Shown here: positions 727-9,505 of the stretch, in pieces
Layout: the number at the start of each line of letters is the position of its first letter
How positions within the stretch are numbered: position 1 is the stretch's first letter
Source: Saprospiraceae bacterium
GTDB taxonomy: Bacteria; Bacteroidota; Bacteroidia; Chitinophagales; Saprospiraceae
Reading direction: 5' to 3'
DNA: 9,505 nucleotides
NCBI GenBank assembly: GCA_013042795.1
Contig: JABDPK010000003.1
Span: 1 to 9,505 of the forward strand
The notes under the pieces: model-generated
What the model was told of the DNA's origin: nothing
The model's input: the letters and a program-made list of their open reading frames with translations, nothing else
Databases searched by the model: none
Position numbers and translations under genes: made by a program

Positions 727-2199
727 ATGGAAACTTTTAAAAATCAATCCAAGAATCAAATCACCTTCATATCTTTTCTTAGGCAAAGGACGCAATTCAT
801 TGAACTCACTATTCTTTCATCGTTTTATATCATTGTATATATTCTTACATTAAAGGCATATCCTTATCCTGACGTAACCCCTGACAGTGGCACATATATC
901 CTGAGTGCCAAGAGAATGTTAATATCTGGATATCGCCCTTTTGGTTATTCATGGTTCCTTAACTATATCCATGAAATTTCTAACGGAGTAAATCTTCTTT
1001 TCTTTAGCCAATATTTGCTAAATGCCCTAGCAAGTTTATTCTTTCTCTTTACAATCAAATATTTTTTTCCTCCTGTCAAGGGGATTGTATTTATTCTACT
1101 TGCATTATTCCTGGTTCTTGAGCCTCATACTCTTTACCTGACCCGGATGATCATGAGTGATACATTATTCACAACAATGACAATCCTTTTTTTAACCAGT
1201 CTTTTCTGGATAAACCAAAACAACAAATTATTAGTTAATATCGTATTACTTGTCTTCCATTTACTGGTATTATATGCCACCTTTAATATCAGATATACCG
1301 CGCTCTTTTATCCTGCGATATCAATCATATATTTTGTTGGGGTTCTCAAGAACAAAATCCTAGGAATTTGCATTGGCTTTCTAGCTGTTTTTGTTGTAGC
1401 TTTCTCCTACAACAAGACGAAAAATGAAATGAAAGAACATTATTCTGTCTATACCTTTTCGGGCTTCGGAGGTTGGGTTCTGGCTAATAATGCTGTTTCT
1501 GTTTTGCCTTACATTGATTTGAATCCTAAGGAATTTACTCATGGAGATTTAAGATTTATACATTCAAAACTGATCACCTATCCTGATTCATTCTACCATA
1601 AAAAGCATATTATCAATACATCATTTATCTGGCTGAATGACTTTCCAGGTAAAAAGGTGTTTTATCAACTTCAGAAGAGCAATAATATGTCCTATGTACA
1701 AGGCTGGAATTATACCGGGGATCGAATGAAGAAATATGCGAAAACCCTCATAAAGAAATACCCCATAAAGTATTTCAGACATTTCATTCTGGTAAACATG
1801 AAACAACTCTTTAAATACTTTGAGATACCCAAACAGGCTAGTTACAAACCGGACGATCTACAAAAAGAATGGTTTGACCTGAAAATTGAAAACCATATAT
1901 TTAAAACCCAGGCTTTCTTTGCTATGAACCCATTATTAAAATGCATTCATTTCATTAGGTGGATACTTTTATTTATTTCAATATTGCTATTATCACTTAA
2001 ATTTCGGACCATCAAGTTTAATTCAAGTCAAAAGAAAATACTTGTGGCCTTATTCACCTTCCTTCTTTTATTTCTTGGTTTTTCTGTAATTGCAAGTCCT
2101 GTGAATAATTTTAGATACCTCACTCCATCTTATATTTATATGCTATCCTTGATTTACATCATTACAAACCAATATCTGTTAAAAAGGAAAAAACTTTGA
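727..2199 (+). CDS. Polytopic membrane protein, GT-C glycosyltransferase-like
   Basis: The 490-residue protein has a short cytoplasmic N-terminus, a first membrane segment at about 26-46, then roughly eight to ten further hydrophobic segments. A soluble central stretch lies at about 235-395, and two or three membrane segments precede a basic tail (KRKKL). The first external loop carries acidic residues (D49 and D53 in PDVTPDSGTY) and RPFGYSWF. A later loop has R140 and SD at 144-145 (TRMIMSD). This arrangement resembles GT-C (ArnT/PMT-like) enzymes, which move sugars from polyprenyl-phosphate donors onto lipids or proteins outside the membrane. The family is inferred from architecture; the substrate cannot be told. 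It stands alone, with no operon partner in the window. The ATG at 727 follows an A/T-rich leader without a Shine-Dalgarno site. An alternative is an uncharacterised polytopic protein of surface-polysaccharide metabolism. Confidence 0.62.
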   Translation: METFKNQSKNQITFISFLRQRTQFIELTILSSFYIIVYILTLKAYPYPDVTPDSGTYILSAKRMLISGYRPFGYSWFLNYIHEISNGVNLLFFSQYLLNALASLFFLFTIKYFFPPVKGIVFILLALFLVLEPHTLYLTRMIMSDTLFTTMTILFLTSLFWINQNNKLLVNIVLLVFHLLVLYATFNIRYTALFYPAISIIYFVGVLKNKILGICIGFLAVFVVAFSYNKTKNEMKEHYSVYTFSGFGGWVLANNAVSVLPYIDLNPKEFTHGDLRFIHSKLITYPDSFYHKKHIINTSFIWLNDFPGKKVFYQLQKSNNMSYVQGWNYTGDRMKKYAKTLIKKYPIKYFRHFILVNMKQLFKYFEIPKQASYKPDDLQKEWFDLKIENHIFKTQAFFAMNPLLKCIHFIRWILLFISILLLSLKFRTIKFNSSQKKILVALFTFLLLFLGFSVIASPVNNFRYLTPSYIYMLSLIYIITNQYLLKRKKL

Positions 2200-2412: not shown

Positions 2413-2485
<73 letters not shown>

Positions 2486-2498
2486 ATATATTTTTTTA

Positions 2499-2542
2499 GA
2501 GTAACCAACTGTGGAATTTATCTGCCAGTGGTAGACTCCGCG
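2499..2542 (-). repeat. tRNA-fMet 5'-half-like repeat, copy 1
   Basis: On the minus strand this 44-nt unit starts CGCGGAGT, like tRNA positions 1-8, and ends CAGTTGGTTACTC, matching tRNA positions 13-25 with two changes. Between them it has a longer insert where the real tRNA has only GGAG. Its 5' end is exactly 57 nt from the 5' end of the tRNA. The unit can fold on itself (GAGT..ACCA.CTG with CAG.TGGT.ACTC). It has no anticodon or T arm, so it is not a functional tRNA. Confidence 0.85.
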
Positions 2543-2555
2543 ATGTTTATTTTAA

Positions 2556-2599
2556 GAGTTACCAACTGTGGAATTTATCCGCCTTTGGTGGACTCCGCG
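2556..2599 (-). repeat. tRNA-fMet 5'-half-like repeat, copy 2
   Basis: This second 44-nt unit matches copy 1 at about 39 of 44 positions, and its 5' end is again exactly 57 nt upstream on the minus strand. It begins CGCGGAGT and ends CAGTTGGTAACTC. The two copies are separated by 13-nt A/T-rich spacers, with a similar spacer between copy 1 and the tRNA. Both lie in the predicted precursor leader of the tRNA. Confidence 0.85.
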
Positions 2600-2631
2600 T
2601 TTTATTTTTTTACTGATCTTAAGCGTCAGGA

Positions 2632-3079: not shown

Positions 3080-4141
3080 CTACTGCGGCATGGCTTTCAA
3101 AGACTTATAATCAATAATAACAATTGTTGATCCATCGATCTCAATCAATTTTTCTTCTTTAAAATCAGATAAGGTACGGATGAGCGTTTCTTTTGCTGTT
3201 CCGGCAGTTGAAGCAAGGTCATCTCTTGTCGCACTGATAGACAGGACACTTTCTTCGTCCTCTGTATTGACAGCACTCGCAAATTCAAGGATTGCATTGG
3301 CTACCTTACGGCGGACTGAAGAATACGCCAATTCTATCAGTTTCTGTTCAGTCGTATTGACTTCGTTGGCAAGCATCTTGATGAACTGAGCTGAAAAATC
3401 ACGATTATTGAATAATAGTAACTTGAAGTCATCCTTGGGGATTAACCTGACTTCAGCTGCTTCCAGGGCAATCGCATTATCGATATAGGGGCTGTCATCC
3501 AGGAGAGGAAAGTAACCGAAAAAATCTCCTTCGGAATAGATATGTGTAATCAGATCCTTCCCGAATTCATTGGATTTATAGGTTTTTACTTTACCGCTGA
3601 TAATAAAAAACAACCACCTTGCGACGCCAGTCTCTTCATATATCTTGTCTTTCTTGTTGTATTTCCTGATTTCCCGATTGACTGATAATTTTTCAAGTTC
3701 TTCACGGGCTCGGGCTTCAGAGAAGAAGCGTTGAAGACCTGTTTCCGTTTTATCAAAACTTTGCTTGATCATGGAACTCTTCTTGATACGCATATCAATA
3801 GCCTCCAGAAGTTCAGTATCATCGAAAGGTTTGGTAATGTAGTCATCTGCTCCCAGGCCCATCCCTTTCCTGAAATCGGTTTTTTCAGCTTTGGCAGTCA
3901 GAAACACAAATGGAATACCATTGGTTTCCGGTTTCTTGTTCAGGATCTTAAGTACGCCAAAACCGTCAAGTTCGGGCATCATAACATCACACAGTATAAG
4001 ATCAGGGTCTTCATTCATCGCCATTTCTACACCTTCTTTCCCGTTCACTGCTGATACGACTTCATAATCTGATAGCTCGAGAATCTCGCAGATGTTTTCC
4101 CTAACTTCAACATTGTCTTCTATGACTAATATTTTCTTCAT
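3080..4141 (-). CDS. Response regulator: receiver fused to CRP/FNR-type DNA-binding protein
   Basis: This 353-residue cytoplasmic transcription factor has three parts. Residues 1-125 are a CheY-like receiver with acidic pocket E8/D9, phospho-acceptor D52, T82 and K104 (TKPF). Residues about 140-265 are a cyclic-nucleotide-binding-type beta barrel and dimer helix. Residues about 270-350 are a CRP-type winged helix with recognition helix TAKETLIRTL. That helix keeps the Glu and Arg used by CRP (E181, R185) and FNR (E209, R213) to read the GA of TGTGA/TTGAT half-sites. The cAMP-contacting RS pair of CRP is absent (PYIDNAIA instead). Only two cysteines exist, both in the receiver, so an FNR-type Fe-S cluster is excluded. 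Control is therefore expected through phosphorylation. It starts 7 nt after the kinase stop codon, in one operon. It is in effect FixJ and FixK in one chain, and its likely sites lie at 5385-5420. Confidence 0.93.
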   Translation of the reverse strand: MKKILVIEDNVEVRENICEILELSDYEVVSAVNGKEGVEMAMNEDPDLILCDVMMPELDGFGVLKILNKKPETNGIPFVFLTAKAEKTDFRKGMGLGADDYITKPFDDTELLEAIDMRIKKSSMIKQSFDKTETGLQRFFSEARAREELEKLSVNREIRKYNKKDKIYEETGVARWLFFIISGKVKTYKSNEFGKDLITHIYSEGDFFGYFPLLDDSPYIDNAIALEAAEVRLIPKDDFKLLLFNNRDFSAQFIKMLANEVNTTEQKLIELAYSSVRRKVANAILEFASAVNTEDEESVLSISATRDDLASTAGTAKETLIRTLSDFKEEKLIEIDGSTIVIIDYKSLKAMPQ

Positions 4142-4148
4142 TGCAATT

Positions 4149-5372
4149 TTATTGGATCGGTATTCTTACTCTAAAGTTACTTCCTTTTTTAGGAGCACTT
4201 GTAAAAGTAATGTTACCATTTAACAAATCTAAATACCTTTTAACAATATTTAAACCCAGGCCTGTTCCCTGAATATTCTCAACATTAGACGCCCTGAAAA
4301 AACGTTCGAACATATATTTCTGTTCATTTTCAGGTATTCCTATCCCCTCATCGATGATTTCAATGATCAATGCTTCTTTTAGATAGGTCGCATGACATCT
4401 TATCGTCGTATTTTCAGGACTATATTTTATAGCATTTGAAACCAGGTTGAACAACACATTCTTAAGAATCCGTATATCGGTTTTAACCGGCCTGGAATCA
4501 CCTGTTGTCATTTGCACAATTTGCTGACCATCTTTTAACAATCCCCTGATTTCATCTGCAACCGTATCGATCAATTCCACAAAATTCATATCCTTCAAGA
4601 CCAGGTCAACTTTGTTTTCTTCAAGCTTGCTTAAAGATAGAAAGTCGTTGAGTATGCCGGTTAGATTTGATACTGCCGACTTGATTCTTTCAACATGCTT
4701 TTGTCTTTTGTCATTACTTTGCTCATCTGTATATTTACTAATTATGGAAGCAGAAGACATCACTGTACTTAAAGGTGTTCTGAATTCATGTGAAGCCATT
4801 GATACAAACCTGGACTTAAGTTCATTGAGTATTCTTTCTTTCTCCAGCGCTTCTTTAAGTTTGCCCTGGCTCCTTTCCAATTGTTTATTGGTAAATAATA
4901 ATTTATTGACAACACTTTCCAGTTCATTGGTTCTTTCTTCAACTTTTTCCTCCAGTCTTTCATTGGACTCGCGAAGTTCTTCCTCTATGCCTTTTATCTC
5001 AGAAAGGTCATGAACGATCCCGGTGTATATAACACGGTCATTCAGTTTGACTTCACTGACGGCCAACCTTATAGGAAAAACCTCCCCCGACTTCTTGCAT
5101 CCTTCGACTTCACGACCAATACCAATAATTTTTGGATGTCGTGTTTTTGTATAATTTTCCAGGTAATCATCATGCTCTCTTTTGTATGGCTGAGGCATTA
5201 ACATCTTGATGTTATTACCCAGCATTTCTTCCCTGGAAAAGCCAAACATATTTAAAACAGCACTATTCACAGACTCTATATTACCGTATTTATCGATCGT
5301 AATAATCCCGTCAATAGCTGTCTCGATAATCGCTTCCAGGCGTTGCGCCAGTTCTTTTAGTTCTTTTTTCAA
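4149..5372 (-). CDS. FixL-like soluble PAS sensor histidine kinase
   Basis: This 407-residue kinase has no membrane segment. A PAS domain covers about 12-125, a coiled coil about 125-185, a dimerisation/phospho-acceptor domain with H195 (MASHEFRTPL), and a catalytic domain with N313 (N box), DEGIG (341-345), FERFFR (355-360) and GTGLGL (369-374). The PAS strongly resembles the heme PAS of FixL. Aligned by eye to Bradyrhizobium FixL, the proximal heme ligand His200 is H67 and the O2-contacting Arg220 is R87, in an identical IIGIGR block. Ile215 is kept (I82), while Arg206 is N73, His214 is K81 and Ile238 is V105. O2, NO or CO sensing is thus likely but inferred. The start is TTG, preceded by AAAAGGA with no spacing; an in-frame ATT upstream is another possibility. 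It heads the kinase-regulator operon. Confidence 0.92.
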   Translation of the reverse strand: MKKELKELAQRLEAIIETAIDGIITIDKYGNIESVNSAVLNMFGFSREEMLGNNIKMLMPQPYKREHDDYLENYTKTRHPKIIGIGREVEGCKKSGEVFPIRLAVSEVKLNDRVIYTGIVHDLSEIKGIEEELRESNERLEEKVEERTNELESVVNKLLFTNKQLERSQGKLKEALEKERILNELKSRFVSMASHEFRTPLSTVMSSASIISKYTDEQSNDKRQKHVERIKSAVSNLTGILNDFLSLSKLEENKVDLVLKDMNFVELIDTVADEIRGLLKDGQQIVQMTTGDSRPVKTDIRILKNVLFNLVSNAIKYSPENTTIRCHATYLKEALIIEIIDEGIGIPENEQKYMFERFFRASNVENIQGTGLGLNIVKRYLDLLNGNITFTSAPKKGSNFRVRIPIQ

Positions 5373-5384
5373 TCCTTTTCTTAG

Positions 5385-5398
5385 TTGATAATTATCAA
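5385..5398. promoter_or_regulatory. Perfect FNR/FixK-type palindrome (box 1)
   Basis: TTGAT-AATT-ATCAA is an exact match to the FNR/FixK consensus TTGAT-N4-ATCAA and is fully palindromic. It lies in the divergent region between the kinase operon and the CBS/USP operon. The receiver-CRP protein encoded next door is the obvious candidate to bind it. It is centred at 5391.5, about 64 bp upstream of the predicted + strand start and inside the predicted leader of the minus-strand operon. Confidence 0.75.
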
Positions 5399-5406
5399 TT
5401 TATCGC

Positions 5407-5420
5407 ATGATATGTATCAT
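5407..5420. promoter_or_regulatory. Second CRP/FNR-like palindrome (box 2)
   Basis: ATGAT-ATGT-ATCAT keeps the TGAT-N4-ATCA core and differs from box 1 only in the outermost base of each arm. It is centred at 5413.5, exactly 22 bp (two helical turns) from box 1. It is about 41-42 bp upstream of the start predicted from TAAATTTG, the class II activator position. Confidence 0.65.
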
Positions 5421-5436
5421 TAATAACCGCAAGGTA

Positions 5437-5444
5437 CAAAGCTA
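5437..5444 (-). promoter_or_regulatory. Putative -7 element for the kinase-regulator operon
   Basis: TAGCTTTG on the minus strand fits TAnnTTTG. No TTG -33 element was found upstream. It overlaps the + strand -7 element by two bases, so polymerase could not occupy both. Predicted transcription would start near 5432, placing both palindromes within the leader, where bound protein would block it. Confidence 0.4.
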
Positions 5445-5450
5445 AATTTG
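5443..5450 (+). promoter_or_regulatory. Putative -7 element for the CBS/USP operon
   Basis: TAAATTTG matches the Bacteroidota -7 consensus and ends 16 bp before the ATG of the CBS gene, giving a very short A-rich leader. No TTG -33 element is present at the usual distance, as expected for an activator-dependent promoter. Box 2 lies where that element would be. Confidence 0.62.
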
Positions 5451-5466
5451 AATAAAAATATAGACT

Positions 5467-5910
5467 ATGAATATATTAGATCCTGTTTCTACCATCATGA
5501 CAACTAATGTGACTTCAGTATCTCCGGAAGATACAATGAAAAAGGTAGAAGAAATTTTCCAGAATGAAAGATTTCACCACTTACCTGTTGTTTGGGAAGG
5601 ACACTTAGTTGGCATGGTGAGCAAATCGGATTACTTGTTTTTCAAGAGAGGTTTCAATGATGACACGACAGACGCTCGTGTGGACTTGCTGCGGCTAAAG
5701 ACAAGGAAAGTCAAAGAATTTATGACATCAGGATTGGCACATCTTGAACCAGAAGACAAAATCAATGTCGCCCTGGAAGTTTTCAAAGAAAATATTTTCC
5801 ATGCTATCCCGGTTGTCAAAGAAGGCAAACTGGTAGGCATTGTGACAACACTTGATGTAATAAGACAATTAGCGGAAACAGGAGAAAAAACATACAGACT
5901 AAAGGAATAA
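5467..5910 (+). CDS. CBS-domain pair protein
   Basis: This 147-residue soluble protein consists almost wholly of two CBS domains. The first (about 8-60) has FHHLPVV and VGMVSKSD (48-55); the second (about 83-137) has FHAIPVV and VGIVTTLD (123-130). CBS pairs form a Bateman module that usually binds adenine nucleotides such as AMP, ATP or SAM and reports energy state; here no enzyme or channel domain is attached. It is the first gene of the operon, 1 nt ahead of the first USP gene, and sits behind the TAAATTTG promoter and the paired palindromes. Stand-alone CBS proteins of this size include mycobacterial HRP1 (Rv2626c), which belongs to the hypoxia-induced DosR regulon. The parallel is functional context, not proven orthology. 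The ligand is unknown. Confidence 0.93.
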   Translation: MNILDPVSTIMTTNVTSVSPEDTMKKVEEIFQNERFHHLPVVWEGHLVGMVSKSDYLFFKRGFNDDTTDARVDLLRLKTRKVKEFMTSGLAHLEPEDKINVALEVFKENIFHAIPVVKEGKLVGIVTTLDVIRQLAETGEKTYRLKE

Positions 5911-5911
5911 T

Positions 5912-6997
5912 ATGATCAACCTTAAAATGTATGGACAGCCTTCATCTGTATACGAGTATGTAAAGATGATGATGATCAAGCAGGCAGAGAAGGCCGGGCT
6001 GGAATTGAATATTGAAGAAATAAATGACCTTGACATAATTATTTCAGAGGAAATCGAGTCCATACCGACGATTAAGGTGAATAATCATATTGATATGAGA
6101 TATCAGAAAGATGAAGATATCAATGAATTTGTTAGAGAACTGAATTCCAAAATCCTGAAAGAAGAAAATTATGGCAATATGAAAAAGATTCTTGTCCCTA
6201 TAGATTTCTCTGAAACTTCAGAAAATGCATGTGCATTTGCAATGGGTCTTTCAAAAGATGTTAATGGAATTTTAAAAGTAGTTCATAGTTATATTCCCAA
6301 AGCGCTAAACATGGAGGGCGCTGTATATATTGATCCTGAAATAGAGAACCTGAGACGAGAACAACTCGATTCATTTGTAGACAAGCTAAATTCCAGCTGG
6401 ATCGGTGAAACTGTCACTACCCCATTAATTGAAAAAGATTTTGTTACCGGATTTGCAGGCAAGGAAATTCCGGAACTTGCATCAAAGGACGGACAATGCA
6501 TGATCGTTATTGGCAGTACCGGAAGTAGTGGTTCTCTAAAAACGATTTTTGGTTCTGTGTCAACAATGATTGCAAAAGATGCGACTTGTCCTGTTTTTGT
6601 TGTGCCACCAAACACCAATTATGGTCCTATCAATAAAATTGCTTATGCTGCAGATGATTTTGATATCGACAGCAGTGTTGTGGAAGATCTGATATACTAC
6701 ACCAGTATTTTTGGCGCTGAACTTCATTTAGCCCATGTAGATGATGAAAAGACGTCTGAACTTAACAAATTGCAAAGCAGACTTTTACTGGAAAATCCAG
6801 AACTGAAAATTTACATGCATGTAATAAATGCTGATGGAATAGTTGAAGGCCTCAACGAATTTGTCGAAGAGCAAGGTATTCAATTGCTGGCAATGACCAA
6901 GCAAAAAAGAACTTTCCTCGACAGTTTGTTCCATTCAAGTATAACCAAAAGGATGACAATCAATACCAAAATACCATTATTAGTGTTGCACAGATAA
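5912..6997 (+). CDS. Tandem universal stress protein with N-terminal cysteine-less thioredoxin-like domain
   Basis: The 361-residue protein has three parts. Residues 1-85 look like a small thioredoxin-fold domain (MINLKMYGQPSSVY... and SIPTIKVN with the cis-Pro site at P52). Where CxxC is expected it has S11 and Y14 (PSSVY), so it cannot do dithiol chemistry. Residues 90-237 are a UspA domain with D98 and a complete ATP motif G201-x2-G204-x9-G214-S215. Residues about 240-361 are a second USP domain without that motif. The ATG at 6179 (residue 90) could allow internal initiation giving a protein without the first domain, but the full frame is open, tightly spaced after the CBS gene and protein-like throughout. 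USPs are cytoplasmic nucleotide-binding proteins of starvation, oxygen and redox stress; the target is unknown. The thioredoxin assignment is by eye and less sure than the USP part. Confidence 0.9.
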   Translation: MINLKMYGQPSSVYEYVKMMMIKQAEKAGLELNIEEINDLDIIISEEIESIPTIKVNNHIDMRYQKDEDINEFVRELNSKILKEENYGNMKKILVPIDFSETSENACAFAMGLSKDVNGILKVVHSYIPKALNMEGAVYIDPEIENLRREQLDSFVDKLNSSWIGETVTTPLIEKDFVTGFAGKEIPELASKDGQCMIVIGSTGSSGSLKTIFGSVSTMIAKDATCPVFVVPPNTNYGPINKIAYAADDFDIDSSVVEDLIYYTSIFGAELHLAHVDDEKTSELNKLQSRLLLENPELKIYMHVINADGIVEGLNEFVEEQGIQLLAMTKQKRTFLDSLFHSSITKRMTINTKIPLLVLHR

Positions 6998-7006
6998 AAA
7001 GACGTT

Positions 7007-7834
7007 ATGATGAAGATTCTGATTCCGGTCGATTTTACAGAAGTAGCTTTCAATGCATTGAAATTTGCGATAAGGCGATACGGTATGGATGCTGAATATC
7101 ATGTTGTACATGTGTATTCAGGACTGGCAACTGCAGACAATCCATTACCCACTGACAGCAGTATTCAAATCACAGAATCTACTGAAGCACAAATTGAAAA
7201 AATCATTCTTGATTCACTGGAATTAGAAAAACTTCCAGAAAACATAATTATCAGGACTGTCAGTGGTGAAACAATATCAAGCCTGGTATCAATATCAAAA
7301 GAAGAAGATTTCAACCAGGCCATCCTGGGTACCAGGGATAATTATGACATGCTTGACAGATGGTTTGGCACCACTTCTCTTGGCCTTGTCAAAAAACTTG
7401 ATCTGCCTGTACTGCTTATACCGAGATATTCATCGTACAACAAATACAAGAAAGTAGTCATCGCCAGTGATCATCATTTGAAAGATGAAAAATTAATCTC
7501 GAAAATCAAAGATTGGAATCAAACGCATAAAGCATATCTCAAATTTCTTCATGTTAGATCAGATGCTGAAGAAGGGTTTGTGGAAGAAAGTGAACAACTT
7601 GTAAAAACACTTTTTGAAGAAGACGATCCGGAATATGGATTTGAGATCACTGCTATCAAAAGTAAAAAAGTAACGGAATCATTACTGGCATCTGCCTATA
7701 ATTTCAAAGCAGATCTTTTGATTATTCTTGCAGAAAAACATTCGTACCTACATACCCTTGTTTTTCAAAGTGTATCAAAAGAGATTATATTGAAATCTTC
7801 GATACCGGTTTTATTCCTGCATACAGAAAGTTAA
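7007..7834 (+). CDS. Tandem universal stress protein, degenerate ATP motif
   Basis: The 275-residue protein has two USP domains. Domain 1 (about 1-140) starts MMKILIPVDFTE with D9. It carries the phosphate-binding loop G108-T-R-D111-x9-G121-T122, in which the second Gly of the G-x2-G-x9-G(S/T) motif is Asp, so ATP binding may be weakened or lost. Domain 2 (about 145-275, KKVVIASDHH... to SIPVLFLH) lacks the loop. It lies 9 nt after the previous gene and 3 nt before the next, clearly co-transcribed. Two consecutive ATGs (7007 and 7010) could start it. With its neighbours it may form mixed USP dimers in which binding and non-binding domains are paired; that is inference. Confidence 0.93.
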   Translation: MMKILIPVDFTEVAFNALKFAIRRYGMDAEYHVVHVYSGLATADNPLPTDSSIQITESTEAQIEKIILDSLELEKLPENIIIRTVSGETISSLVSISKEEDFNQAILGTRDNYDMLDRWFGTTSLGLVKKLDLPVLLIPRYSSYNKYKKVVIASDHHLKDEKLISKIKDWNQTHKAYLKFLHVRSDAEEGFVEESEQLVKTLFEEDDPEYGFEITAIKSKKVTESLLASAYNFKADLLIILAEKHSYLHTLVFQSVSKEIILKSSIPVLFLHTES

Positions 7835-7837
7835 AAA

Positions 7838-8644
7838 ATGAAAATACTTTGTCCCATAGATTTCTCTCAGGCTTCAGTCAATGCTGTGAAATGGATCGTT
7901 CAGTTCCTTGACTACTTGGGTGAAGGTGAAGTTCATCTTTTACATACTGTCAATGCCCAACGAAGATCCGGGTTATTTGTCCCCCTGGATGAAATGTTCA
8001 TGGAAAAAGCCAATGTTGATGTTGCACAACTGATAGAATCCATGCGCAAGATCAGCGATAAAGTCAAATTTTCCAGTGAAGTGGTCGTTGCCGATCCCAA
8101 GAGATATATTGTTGCACTCAGCAAGAGAAAAATATATGACTGGATTGTTACCGGCACAAAGGGTTTGACCGCTCTTAAAAATATAACTGTTGGTTCGGTC
8201 ACTGAATATATCATTGAACACTCGGATAATATCATCCTGGCAATACCTGAAGAAGCCTCTTTTGATGAATTCAAAGTAATGGTATTGGGAGTGGATGACC
8301 AAATTCTCGATGATGGACAAATTCTTGACCCGGTCAAAAATTTATGCAATCTATTTGATGCAAGACTTTATATGGTACATGTTCGTCGGAAAGATGATTC
8401 CGTTTTCGAATATGACCCTGCACTGGATATTTATCTTGAAGATGTCAACTATGAATATAAGGCTCTTGAATATGAAAATTCAGTCGCAGAAACGATAACC
8501 GAGTATTGTGAATATGTGAAAGCTGATATGTTGATTATGATTCACAGGAAGAAAAATTGGCTTGAAAGACTATTTGTAAGGAGTATAACAAAATCTGAAT
8601 TATTTGAAATAAAGACGCCGTTGCTAATACTCCATTCAGATTAA
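7838..8644 (+). CDS. Tandem universal stress protein, intact ATP motif
   Basis: The 268-residue protein has two USP domains. Domain 1 (about 1-138) starts MKILCPIDFSQ with D8 and has a complete motif G106-T-K-G109-x9-G119-S120, predicting ATP binding. Domain 2 (about 144-268, KVMVLGVDD... to KTPLLILH) has no glycine motif. It retains the typical last strand, as in the other two USPs of the operon. It is the last gene: its stop is followed by about 48 bp and a strong terminator. The start ATG lies 3 nt past the previous stop, behind an A run and with no Shine-Dalgarno site, suggesting translational coupling. Confidence 0.93.
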   Translation: MKILCPIDFSQASVNAVKWIVQFLDYLGEGEVHLLHTVNAQRRSGLFVPLDEMFMEKANVDVAQLIESMRKISDKVKFSSEVVVADPKRYIVALSKRKIYDWIVTGTKGLTALKNITVGSVTEYIIEHSDNIILAIPEEASFDEFKVMVLGVDDQILDDGQILDPVKNLCNLFDARLYMVHVRRKDDSVFEYDPALDIYLEDVNYEYKALEYENSVAETITEYCEYVKADMLIMIHRKKNWLERLFVRSITKSELFEIKTPLLILHSD

Positions 8645-8692: not shown

Positions 8693-8725
8693 CGCCCGCC
8701 GAGAAAGTTTCGGTGGGTGTTTTTT
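8693..8725 (+). terminator. Rho-independent terminator of the CBS/USP operon
   Basis: CGCCCGCCGA (8693-8702) pairs with TCGGTGGGTG (8710-8719) over 10 bp with two G.U wobbles, around a 7-nt loop. TTTTTT follows on the plus strand. The T run reaches the stop codon of the convergent permease gene. No U run follows in the minus direction, so it serves the plus-strand operon. Confidence 0.9.
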
Positions 8726-9505
8726 ATTTTAGCAATCGGGGTATGGCTCCTGCCATACCTGCATTGTAGACAAACAATGTCAGTTCATTCTTGTCTGACA
8801 TATTAATTATCCATTCAGTAAATATATTCTCCTGAATTCTACCAGACAGTTTTAATCCCAGCATCACTACCCTATTTTTTTCACTTTCAGTTTTAATGAT
8901 TTCCATGGCATCATTTTCATCTATATAAAGTTTTACCTTACCCTTTATCCTGGCCTTGTTCAGTTGCTGATATATTTTGGCTTTGAATTCTTGAGCCTTT
9001 TCCTGGCTTCGTACGACCGATGCAATTTCAATTTCATAGTTCCTGTAATCTTGATTAAGTCTCATCAAATGTGCCAGTAACAGCATCAGGTCTGCATTAT
9101 TATCCTTCCCTCCCCACCAAATCAAAATCTTATCTTCGGCATTCTCTTTTCTTGGCCCAAATCTTGAGTAGATGATATTCTTTCCTGATTCAGCCATTGA
9201 TATAAGTTTTCGAAATTGGTCTTTTCTGGATTCCTCTTTTTCAGAAACACCCTCCATAATAGTGTTGGATTTTAATCCTGCAATTCCATGTGCCCTGGCT
9301 ATTTCCAATGATCCGTTACGATAATTCCTGACAACATTGACTTCACAAAATGCTTCTATCCCAGATTCAGTCAGGTCTTCATGCATCTGTTCGAGTCTTT
9401 GACCTATATCTTCCTGGCTTTCGAACGCATCCAAATCTACCATCTGACAGAGTGTGAGGACACCTTTTGATTCAGCGATCGCTGCGCCCAGTTTAACCTG
9501 TTCTA
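8724..9505 (-). CDS. SLC12/cation-chloride-cotransporter-like permease, C-terminal part (5' end cut)
   Basis: The frame is open from the window edge to a TAA at 8724-8726, so only the last 260 or so residues are seen; the ATG at 9443 is internal. No membrane segment occurs in this part. The block KILIWWGGKDNNADLMLLLA, followed by RLNQDYRNYEIEI and a C-terminal MSDKNELTLFVYN, resembles the cytoplasmic C-terminal domain of SLC12-type (APC superfamily) transporters, where WW or PWGG then DNNADLMLLL-like motifs are typical. That domain has a USP-like fold in a structurally studied archaeal homologue (from memory). The missing N-terminal part should carry about 12 membrane helices. Substrate (K+, Cl- or amino acids) cannot be told. 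The gene converges on the USP operon. The family call rests on motif recognition by eye. Confidence 0.7.
   Translation of the reverse strand, partial: EQVKLGAAIAESKGVLTLCQMVDLDAFESQEDIGQRLEQMHEDLTESGIEAFCEVNVVRNYRNGSLEIARAHGIAGLKSNTIMEGVSEKEESRKDQFRKLISMAESGKNIIYSRFGPRKENAEDKILIWWGGKDNNADLMLLLAHLMRLNQDYRNYEIEIASVVRSQEKAQEFKAKIYQQLNKARIKGKVKLYIDENDAMEIIKTESEKNRVVMLGLKLSGRIQENIFTEWIINMSDKNELTLFVYNAGMAGAIPRLLK

What the first reader, a model, noticed from the sequence alone, without database searches (positions are those of the whole stretch)
3080..8644. Predicted heme-sensor/receiver-CRP circuit controlling a CBS and triple-USP operon
A FixL-like heme-PAS kinase and a response regulator that merges receiver and CRP/FNR-type DNA-binding parts are divergent from a compact operon of one CBS-pair protein and three double USPs. 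FNR/FixK-type sites lie between them. This combines in one 5.6-kb locus what other bacteria spread over FixL, FixJ and FixK, and its output (USPs plus a CBS protein) parallels the DosR hypoxia regulon of mycobacteria and the Anr/FNR-controlled USPs of proteobacteria. A Bacteroidota oxygen-limitation or dormancy switch is a coherent hypothesis.
Basis: partly seen in the sequence, partly recalled or inferred. Interest (0 to 1): 0.78.

Follow-up and report, generated by a model that had tools for sequence, protein, structure and literature searches.

The report
Low-oxygen switch of Bacteroidota
A predicted oxygen-sensing kinase and a regulator that joins a signal receiver directly to a CRP/FNR-type DNA-binding part sit next to the stress genes they probably switch on when oxygen runs low, and the same DNA control site turns up in front of respiration and dormancy genes in related bacteria.

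Summary
The window encodes a kinase whose PAS domain is closest to FixL (His67 and Arg87 match the FixL heme ligand and oxygen-binding Arg), a receiver-cNMP-HTH_Crp regulator, and divergently a CBS-pair protein and three double-Usp proteins; the first carries an extra thioredoxin-like domain. In 52 of 80 fetched relatives a CBS/Usp gene lies divergently within 1.5 kb of the regulator's operon. Between them is a conserved operator: two ATGAY-N4-RTCAT palindromes 22 bp apart, with a -7 box 29.5-30.5 bp from the proximal centre (class II activator geometry, inferred). In 20 relatives' genomes this tandem arrangement occurs 87 times (0 in reversed-pattern controls), before usp, cbs, hsp20, hemN and a cbb3-associated-type ATPase, and in single genomes nosZ, pyruvate:ferredoxin oxidoreductase and others. 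In 295 genomes of the class it tracks the regulator (118 of 143 with, 46 of 152 without; kinship uncorrected). Of the 46, 30 carry a stand-alone FNR-like protein with nearly the same recognition helix. Best reading: FixL-FixJ-FixK shortened to two proteins, on an operator shared with an FNR-type regulator. Heme, oxygen response and DNA binding are untested. New variant of a known kind.

The parts
3080..4141 (-). Response regulator: receiver (phospho-acceptor Asp52), cNMP-binding fold, Crp-type HTH; recognition helix GTAKETLIRTLSDFK
   Evidence: Pfam PF00072, PF00027, PF13545; Asp52 and residues 314-322 invariant in 16 of 16 aligned homologues
4149..5372 (-). Sensor histidine kinase; PAS from about residue 11, then HisKA (phospho-His195) and HATPase_c; TTG start
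5004..5342 (-). FixL-like PAS domain (residues 11-123); His67 (codon 5172-5174) and Arg87 (codon 5112-5114) match the FixL proximal His and oxygen-binding Arg
   Evidence: ungapped phmmer alignments to FixL PDB chains, 7e-27 to 6e-23; conservation in relatives; roles of the FixL residues recalled
5385..5398 (.). Distal operator palindrome TTGATAATTATCAA
5407..5420 (.). Proximal operator palindrome ATGATATGTATCAT, 22 bp from the distal site
5443..5450 (+). Bacteroidota -7 promoter box TAAATTTG (TAnnTTTG), 29.5 bp from the proximal operator centre
   Evidence: the name of the box is recalled knowledge
5467..5910 (+). CBS-pair protein, first gene of the target operon
   Evidence: PF00571, two stretches
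5912..6997 (+). Thioredoxin-fold plus double-Usp protein; first Usp keeps the G-2x-G-9x-G-S ATP motif (Gly201, Gly204, Gly214, Ser215; motif named from passages of PMC11841059 and recall)
   Evidence: PF00582 two stretches; PF13192 in 36 of 37 homologues at E up to 1; AlphaFold model mean pLDDT 87.5; Gly214 invariant, the others in 90% or more
5912..6175 (+). N-terminal thioredoxin-like domain without the CxxC motif, with an invariant Pro52 at the presumed cis-Pro position
7007..7834 (+). Double-Usp protein 2 (ATP motif degenerate in the first domain, read by eye)
7838..8644 (+). Double-Usp protein 3 (ATP motif kept in the first domain, read by eye)

Best explanation
An oxygen-limitation switch of Bacteroidota. 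Inferred: a FixL-type heme-PAS kinase is silenced by oxygen bound to its heme; when oxygen falls it phosphorylates the receiver of a REC-CRP fusion. The CRP half has neither FNR cysteines nor the cAMP-contact residues of CRP, so phosphorylation is the likely input. The active dimer binds two tandem ATGAY-N4-RTCAT operators 22 bp apart; the proximal one lies near -41.5, where a CRP/FNR protein contacts RNA polymerase (class II), and activates the CBS/Usp operon. Shown by sequence: the gene set, the recurring synteny, the conserved tandem operator at fixed distance from a -7 box, its recurrence before oxygen-limitation and dormancy genes in relatives, and its co-occurrence with this regulator family. 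Inferred: heme, oxygen response, phosphotransfer, binding, transcription start and direction of control.
For: PAS: best PDB matches are FixL; His67 and Arg87 align ungapped with the FixL residues; 33 of 47 adjacent kinases keep both in FixL-like sequence. Synteny: divergent CBS/Usp gene in 52 of 80 loci. Operator found de novo: TGAT-N4-ATCA in 26 of 46 divergent regions (expected 0.8; highest count of any pair in 20 shuffled sets 8), 22-bp tandem half-sites in 16 (expected 0.6). TAnnTTTG with at most 1 mismatch at offset 29 in 28 and at offset 30 in 8 other regions, together 36 of 53; at most 3 at any other offset. Given one site plus -7 box, a second site exactly 22 bp upstream in 28 of 78, at most 3 at the other upstream offsets. 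Whole genomes: 87 tandem operators in 20 of 20 relatives, 0 in controls. Downstream: usp, cbs, hsp20, hemN, P-type ATPase in several genomes; nosZ, PFOR, rnfC, hypA-like, clp, ftsH in one each. ccoNO, ccoP and ccoG homologues beside the regulator in 8 of 80 loci. Co-occurrence: 118 of 143 genomes with the regulator against 46 of 152 without.
Against: No heme, oxygen, phosphotransfer, binding or expression data. 18 of 52 divergent loci have no kinase next to the regulator. 14 of 47 adjacent kinases show no FixL-like PAS by my alignment (at least L001 and L009 are cut or split reading frames), so the signal may vary. 28 of 80 loci lack the divergent arrangement and 22 have neither CBS nor Usp genes in the fetched flank. 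25 of 143 genomes with the regulator show no tandem operator. 46 of 152 without it do; 30 of these have the stand-alone FNR-like protein, 16 have neither at my thresholds. The co-occurrence test is not corrected for kinship. The targets were examined in 20 genomes chosen for having the locus; the window's own genome is not held. The window's distal site has T/A outer bases instead of A/T. In the window no mirrored -7 box serves the kinase operon, so how that operon is controlled is open.
Confidence: 0.8

Rival explanations
1. The operators are read mainly by a stand-alone FNR-type regulator; the REC-CRP protein is a minor or local regulator that happens to sit beside one target operon.
For: Stand-alone CRP/FNR proteins with an FNR-like cysteine pattern and nearly the same recognition helix exist in the class; tandem operators occur in 30 of 35 genomes that have this protein without REC-CRP (19 of 24 without the genomes that supplied the profile).
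Against: 97 of 120 genomes with REC-CRP but without the strong FNR-like match still have tandem operators, against 16 of 117 with neither; the operator lies in the regulator's own divergent region in 46 of 53 regions by score.
Confidence: 0.12
2. The kinase senses something other than oxygen (redox, NO or CO) through this PAS domain or its variants, and the circuit is a general respiratory or redox switch.
For: PAS type varies: 14 of 47 adjacent kinases show no FixL-like PAS; nosZ and a sulfide:quinone-reductase-like gene are among the predicted targets, one genome each; heme PAS domains can bind NO and CO (recalled).
Against: In the window the His and Arg equivalents of FixL are kept, and the targets include hemN in 4 and the cbb3-associated-type ATPase in 5 of 20 genomes, a classical low-oxygen set.
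Confidence: 0.15
3. The kinase-regulator pair and the CBS/Usp operon are neighbours by chance or linkage only, and the palindromes are unrelated repeats.
For: Generic gene families; single TGA-N6-TCA sites in the window are at chance level.
Against: Recurrent synteny, the 22-bp tandem and the fixed -7 distance in many loci, and 87 against 0 genome-wide hits.
Confidence: 0.02

Closest known systems
FixL-FixJ-FixK cascade with the parallel FnrN regulator (Alphaproteobacteria; passages of PMC4999443 seen)
   Same: Heme kinase; two-component input that controls a CRP/FNR protein lacking an Fe-S cluster; the passages name cco and nos among FnrN/FixK targets and propose that FixK arose from fnrN and that transferred FixK bound existing FnrN sites.
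   Different: Here receiver and CRP/FNR DNA-binding parts are one protein, so there is no FixJ-to-FixK transcription step; the operator is ATGAY-N4-RTCAT in tandem; the output beside the regulator is CBS plus Usp.
NmpRSTU oxygen-utilisation regulon of Myxococcus xanthus (PMC11841059: abstract, passages and section 17 seen)
   Same: Heme sensor kinase, hypoxia, and targets that include a CBS protein, a Usp, a P-type ATPase with cbb3 oxidase, and HemN.
   Different: Nmp uses a protoglobin-type sensor, a hybrid-kinase relay and an NtrC-like sigma-54 regulator.
DosR dormancy regulon of mycobacteria (recalled; touched on in the passages of PMC11841059)
   Same: Hypoxia two-component system with Usp, CBS and Hsp20-type outputs; the best fold match of the first Usp protein is Rv2623.
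   Different: DosS/DosT use GAF heme domains and DosR has a NarL-type output (recalled).
FNR of enterobacteria (recalled) and the stand-alone FNR-like proteins found here
   Same: CRP/FNR fold; the stand-alone protein has nearly the same recognition helix and its genomes carry the same tandem operator.
   Different: The window protein has no cysteine in its CRP half and carries a receiver instead.

Membership tests
FixL (oxygen-sensing kinase) | PAS domain with proximal His and distal Arg of the heme pocket | tested here: met
   His67 and Arg87 align ungapped with FixL PDB chains
FixL (oxygen-sensing kinase) | Passes the NCBIfam equivalog cut-off for rhizobial FixL | tested here: not met
   NF041777 scores 133 bits, cut-off 850
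FixL (oxygen-sensing kinase) | Binds heme and is switched off by oxygen | not testable with these tools
   needs purified protein
FixJ | Receiver plus LuxR-type HTH (recalled) | tested here: not met
   output is cNMP_binding plus HTH_Crp_2
FNR | Fe-S cluster cysteines (three N-terminal plus one further on; recalled) | tested here: not met
   no cysteine in the window protein's CRP half (alignment A3)
FixK | CRP/FNR fold without Fe-S cluster, controlled through a FixL-type system | tested here: inconclusive
   fold and missing cysteines met; control is predicted by phosphorylation of a fused receiver, which FixK lacks (recalled)
CRP (cAMP receptor) | cAMP-contact residues Glu72 and Arg82 (numbers recalled) | tested here: not met
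   alignment to a CRP chain shows Tyr and Ile at these columns (read by eye)
Class II CRP/FNR-activated promoter | Palindrome at a fixed distance from the promoter, near -41.5 | tested here: met
   distance to the -7 box fixed at offset 29 or 30 in 36 of 53 regions; the transcription start itself is inferred, so -41.5 is not measured
DosR system | GAF-heme kinase and NarL-type regulator (recalled) | tested here: not met
   PAS and HTH_Crp instead; only the regulon content is parallel
Universal stress proteins | Usp domain | tested here: met
   PF00582, two stretches in each of three proteins

The most novel reading that the evidence does not exclude
Across much of the class one tandem operator (two ATGAY-N4-RTCAT sites 22 bp apart, fixed to the -7 box) defines an oxygen-limitation and dormancy regulon that is read by two interchangeable regulators with nearly the same recognition helix: an FNR-like protein with Fe-S-type cysteines that would sense oxygen directly, and a REC-CRP fusion that would receive the signal by phosphorylation from a FixL-like or other kinase. 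The fusion is a one-protein counterpart of FixJ plus FixK that took over FNR operators.
Probability: 0.6. Interest if true: 0.78.

Novelty: new variant of a known kind. Interest (0 to 1): 0.64.

Why it matters
If true, it gives a large class of Bacteroidota a defined oxygen-limitation regulator with a readable operator, so that respiration (cbb3, nosZ), fermentation and dormancy genes can be assigned to one switch from sequence alone. It would also be an independent case of two-component control taking over an FNR-type regulon, by direct fusion of receiver and CRP/FNR parts. The thioredoxin-Usp-CBS module becomes testable as an output of oxygen limitation.

Tried and rejected
FNR consensus TTGAT-N4-ATCAA as the motif: found with at most one mismatch in only 16 of 53 divergent regions; a de novo palindrome search gave the better ATGAY-N4-RTCAT. 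cAMP or Fe-S sensing by the regulator: rejected on residues. Operator exclusive to REC-CRP: rejected, because tandem operators occur in 46 of 152 genomes without it, 30 of them with the FNR-like protein. The threshold for that protein was set at 1e-89 because the profile A4 also matches at about 1e-50 to 1e-66 in genomes that have REC-CRP, presumably through its CRP half; genomes with weaker stand-alone matches between these values count as 'neither'. 11 of the 35 FNR-only genomes supplied the profile and had been picked for having at least 3 operators; the count without them is 19 of 24. One of the 19 genomes picked (G142) had no CRP match, and the best matches of two others lack the cysteines (G163) or the helix (G269). 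Downstream genes could be assigned for 78 of 87 tandem sites; 9 had none by my simple gene caller. In one search, 46 of 53 regions passed the score cut, 7 did not. Profile naming covered 28 different regulon proteins, not all. Literature: ten searches listed no paper whose title or abstract start describes a REC-CRP regulator or this operator in Bacteroidota; I opened only two papers, and the library holds open-licence PMC papers only. Autoregulation: mirrored -7 boxes for the kinase operon exist in 21 of 53 regions (offset 29 in 13, offset 30 in 8) but not in the window.
Full report
What is there. The window holds, on the minus strand, a kinase (4149-5372) followed 7 bp on by a regulator (3080-4141), and divergently a CBS-pair protein (5467-5910) and three double-Usp proteins (5912-6997, 7007-7834, 7838-8644). 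The regulator is receiver, cNMP-binding fold and Crp-type HTH, one of a large family (7999 candidates were scored, a capped number, and 7999 passed; the best 120 were listed). Its closest matches among the genome contigs are Saprospiraceae and Lewinellaceae, 67% identity at best, so the window is most likely from that group.

Sensor. The PAS domain of the kinase matches FixL chains best in the PDB (7e-27 to 6e-23; the next group, Dos/DosP, about 1e-13). The alignments are ungapped over the heme pocket: His67 falls on the FixL proximal His, Arg87 on the Arg that binds oxygen; a FixL chain with Ala at that column (1y28) is in the same table (the residue roles are recalled). By my adjacency rule 47 kinases (window included) lie next to the regulator; 39 have an alignable PAS and 33 keep His and Arg in FixL-like sequence; one more (L008) has both letters in an unlike PAS; 5 have other letters; 8 gave no alignment, among them the cut or split frames L001 and L009. 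So the FixL type is the commonest but the sensor seems exchangeable. The kinase does not reach NCBIfam's FixL cut-off (133 of 850 bits): it is FixL-like in its PAS, not a FixL orthologue by that test.

Regulator input. The CRP half aligns with CRP (1e-17) and best with a Crp/Fnr-family regulator, 2gau (6e-26), but has Tyr and Ile where CRP has its cAMP-contact Glu and Arg (read by eye), and no cysteine. Asp52 is invariant in 16 of 16 homologues. Phosphorylation is therefore the likely input (inference).

Synteny. 47 of 80 have both CBS and Usp genes in the fetched flank, 11 have one of the two, 22 have neither; some flanks are short. Eight loci also hold homologues of ccoNO, ccoP and ccoG together, and 13 hold one of these or of the P-type ATPase; in the one locus named by profile (L029) ccoNO and ccoG pass their cut-offs and ccoP does not.

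Operator. Searching the divergent regions for palindromes without a preset motif gave TGAT-N4-ATCA in 26 of 46 regions (expected 0.8; highest count of any pair in 20 shuffled sets 8) and the half-site pair ATCA-N10-TGAT in 16 (expected 0.6), that is, two sites 22 bp apart. Anchoring 53 regions on the best site pair (46 pass the score cut) shows ATGAY-N4-RTCAT twice and, without having been selected for, a -7 box downstream. TAnnTTTG with at most one mismatch occurs at offset 29 in 28 and at offset 30 in 8 further regions, 36 of 53 in all, and at most 3 times at any other offset; mirrored towards the kinase operon it occurs in 21 of 53. In the window the sites are at 5385-5398 and 5407-5420 and the box at 5443-5450; the whole arrangement occurs once and in none of 200 shuffles. 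With the start about 12 bp from the TA of the box (recalled for Bacteroidota), the proximal site sits near -41.5, the class II activator position. In the window no mirrored box serves the kinase operon.

Regulon in relatives. One site plus box: 78 hits in 18 of 20 genomes, 2 in reversed-pattern controls; in 28 of the 78 a second site lies exactly 22 bp upstream, at most 3 at the other upstream offsets tested and at most 4 downstream. Tandem plus relaxed box: 87 hits in 20 of 20 genomes, 0 in controls. The 20 genomes were chosen because they have the locus. Downstream operons (78 of 87 sites) contain Usp proteins (34 proteins, 15 genomes), CBS proteins (30, 13), a small membrane-like protein with no Pfam hit at 0.001 (8, 7), Hsp20 (5, 5), a heavy-metal P-type ATPase (5, 5) and HemN (4, 4) (one member of each of the last four groups was scanned). 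Named by profile in single genomes: clade II NosZ and RnfC above their cut-offs, pyruvate:ferredoxin oxidoreductase below its cut-off, HypA just below, a Clp ATPase, FtsH, a second Crp/Fnr regulator; an S30AE ribosome-hibernation protein in a group of 2 genomes. HemN is above its cut-off. Other proteins behind the sites have no clear link to oxygen (YceI, cupin, decarboxylase-like, ABC1 kinase-like, or no hit). On the whole this is an oxygen-limitation and dormancy set.

Spread and the second regulator. In 295 genomes of the class the tandem pattern occurs in 164 (control 1) and the REC-CRP regulator in 143 (E at most 1e-55). Pattern present in 118 of 143 with and 46 of 152 without the regulator (Fisher p 3e-20, kinship not corrected). 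Of 19 genomes without REC-CRP but with at least 3 operators, 18 have a CRP/FNR homologue. Of 23 proteins that a helix pattern picked from the 30 loci of that search, 22 have CxxC near the N-terminus and most have a third cysteine 8 to 11 residues on and one near position 111; in 12 aligned, cysteines 9, 12, 37, 58 and 111 are invariant, while the third N-terminal one is shifted in L228 and missing in L237. This recalls the FNR cluster pattern (recalled, not tested). They share about 30 to 35% identity with the window's CRP half but the recognition helix is nearly the same (GTATETxIRLLSEFK against GTAKETLIRTLSDFK; Gly, Thr, Ala, Glu, Ile, Arg and Leu invariant in 14 of 14). Split by both regulators: REC-CRP only 97 of 120 with operators, both 21 of 23, FNR-like only 30 of 35 (19 of 24 without the genomes that supplied the profile), neither 16 of 117 (FNR-like means a match to A4 at 1e-89 or better).

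Output proteins. The first Usp protein has an N-terminal domain that hits Thioredoxin_3 in 36 of 37 homologues at E up to 1 (best 1.5e-13; window 0.097, below the curated cut-off), with an invariant Pro52 and no CxxC in the window protein; the model (mean pLDDT 87.5) shows strand-helix-strand-helix-strand-strand-helix, the thioredoxin order. The best fold match of the whole model is Rv2623, a mycobacterial Usp (its place in the DosR regulon is recalled); that search gave no thioredoxin match among the rows listed, so the thioredoxin call rests on Pfam and strand order.

Relation to what is known. It works like FixL-FixJ-FixK beside FnrN: in Alphaproteobacteria FixK lacks the Fe-S cluster, takes its input from FixLJ and is proposed to have bound existing FnrN sites (passages, PMC4999443). 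Here the two steps are one protein. The regulon content is close to that of NmpRSTU of Myxococcus, which uses a protoglobin sensor and an NtrC-like regulator (PMC11841059: abstract, passages, section 17). Ten literature searches listed no description of a REC-CRP regulator or of this operator in Bacteroidota (titles and abstract starts; open-licence PMC papers only).

Limits. Nothing was measured; the regulon is from relatives; transcription starts are inferred; the kinship correction was not run.

Noticed in passing
window 8724-9503 (-): C-terminal part of a cation-chloride cotransporter (SLC12) protein, running off the window end (Pfam SLC12 5e-07, TIGR00930 5e-10).
   Followed up: no
window 727-2199 (+): 490-aa protein, membrane-like by eye, with no Pfam hit at 0.01.
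   Followed up: no
window 2413-2600 (-): A tRNA gene at 2413-2485 (CAT anticodon read by eye) with two imperfect repeats beside it that resemble pieces of its 5' end; possibly decayed tRNA copies (by eye).
   Followed up: no
L040, L044, L049, L054, L056 (Usp proteins): In five homologues the thioredoxin-Usp protein has an extra N-terminal cysteine cluster of the kind CxxxCxxC before the thioredoxin-like domain.
   Followed up: no
L204:1187-1519 and relatives: A family of about 111-126 aa without Pfam hit recurs behind tandem operators (6 proteins in 5 genomes), in some operons next to a ribosome-hibernation or Usp gene.
   Followed up: partly
L003:11051-11296 and relatives: A small membrane-like protein of about 80 aa without Pfam hit at 0.001 recurs behind tandem operators (8 proteins in 7 genomes).
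   Followed up: partly
L221-L242: Stand-alone CRP/FNR proteins with an FNR-like cysteine pattern, apparently a direct oxygen-sensing counterpart on the same operator.
   Followed up: partly
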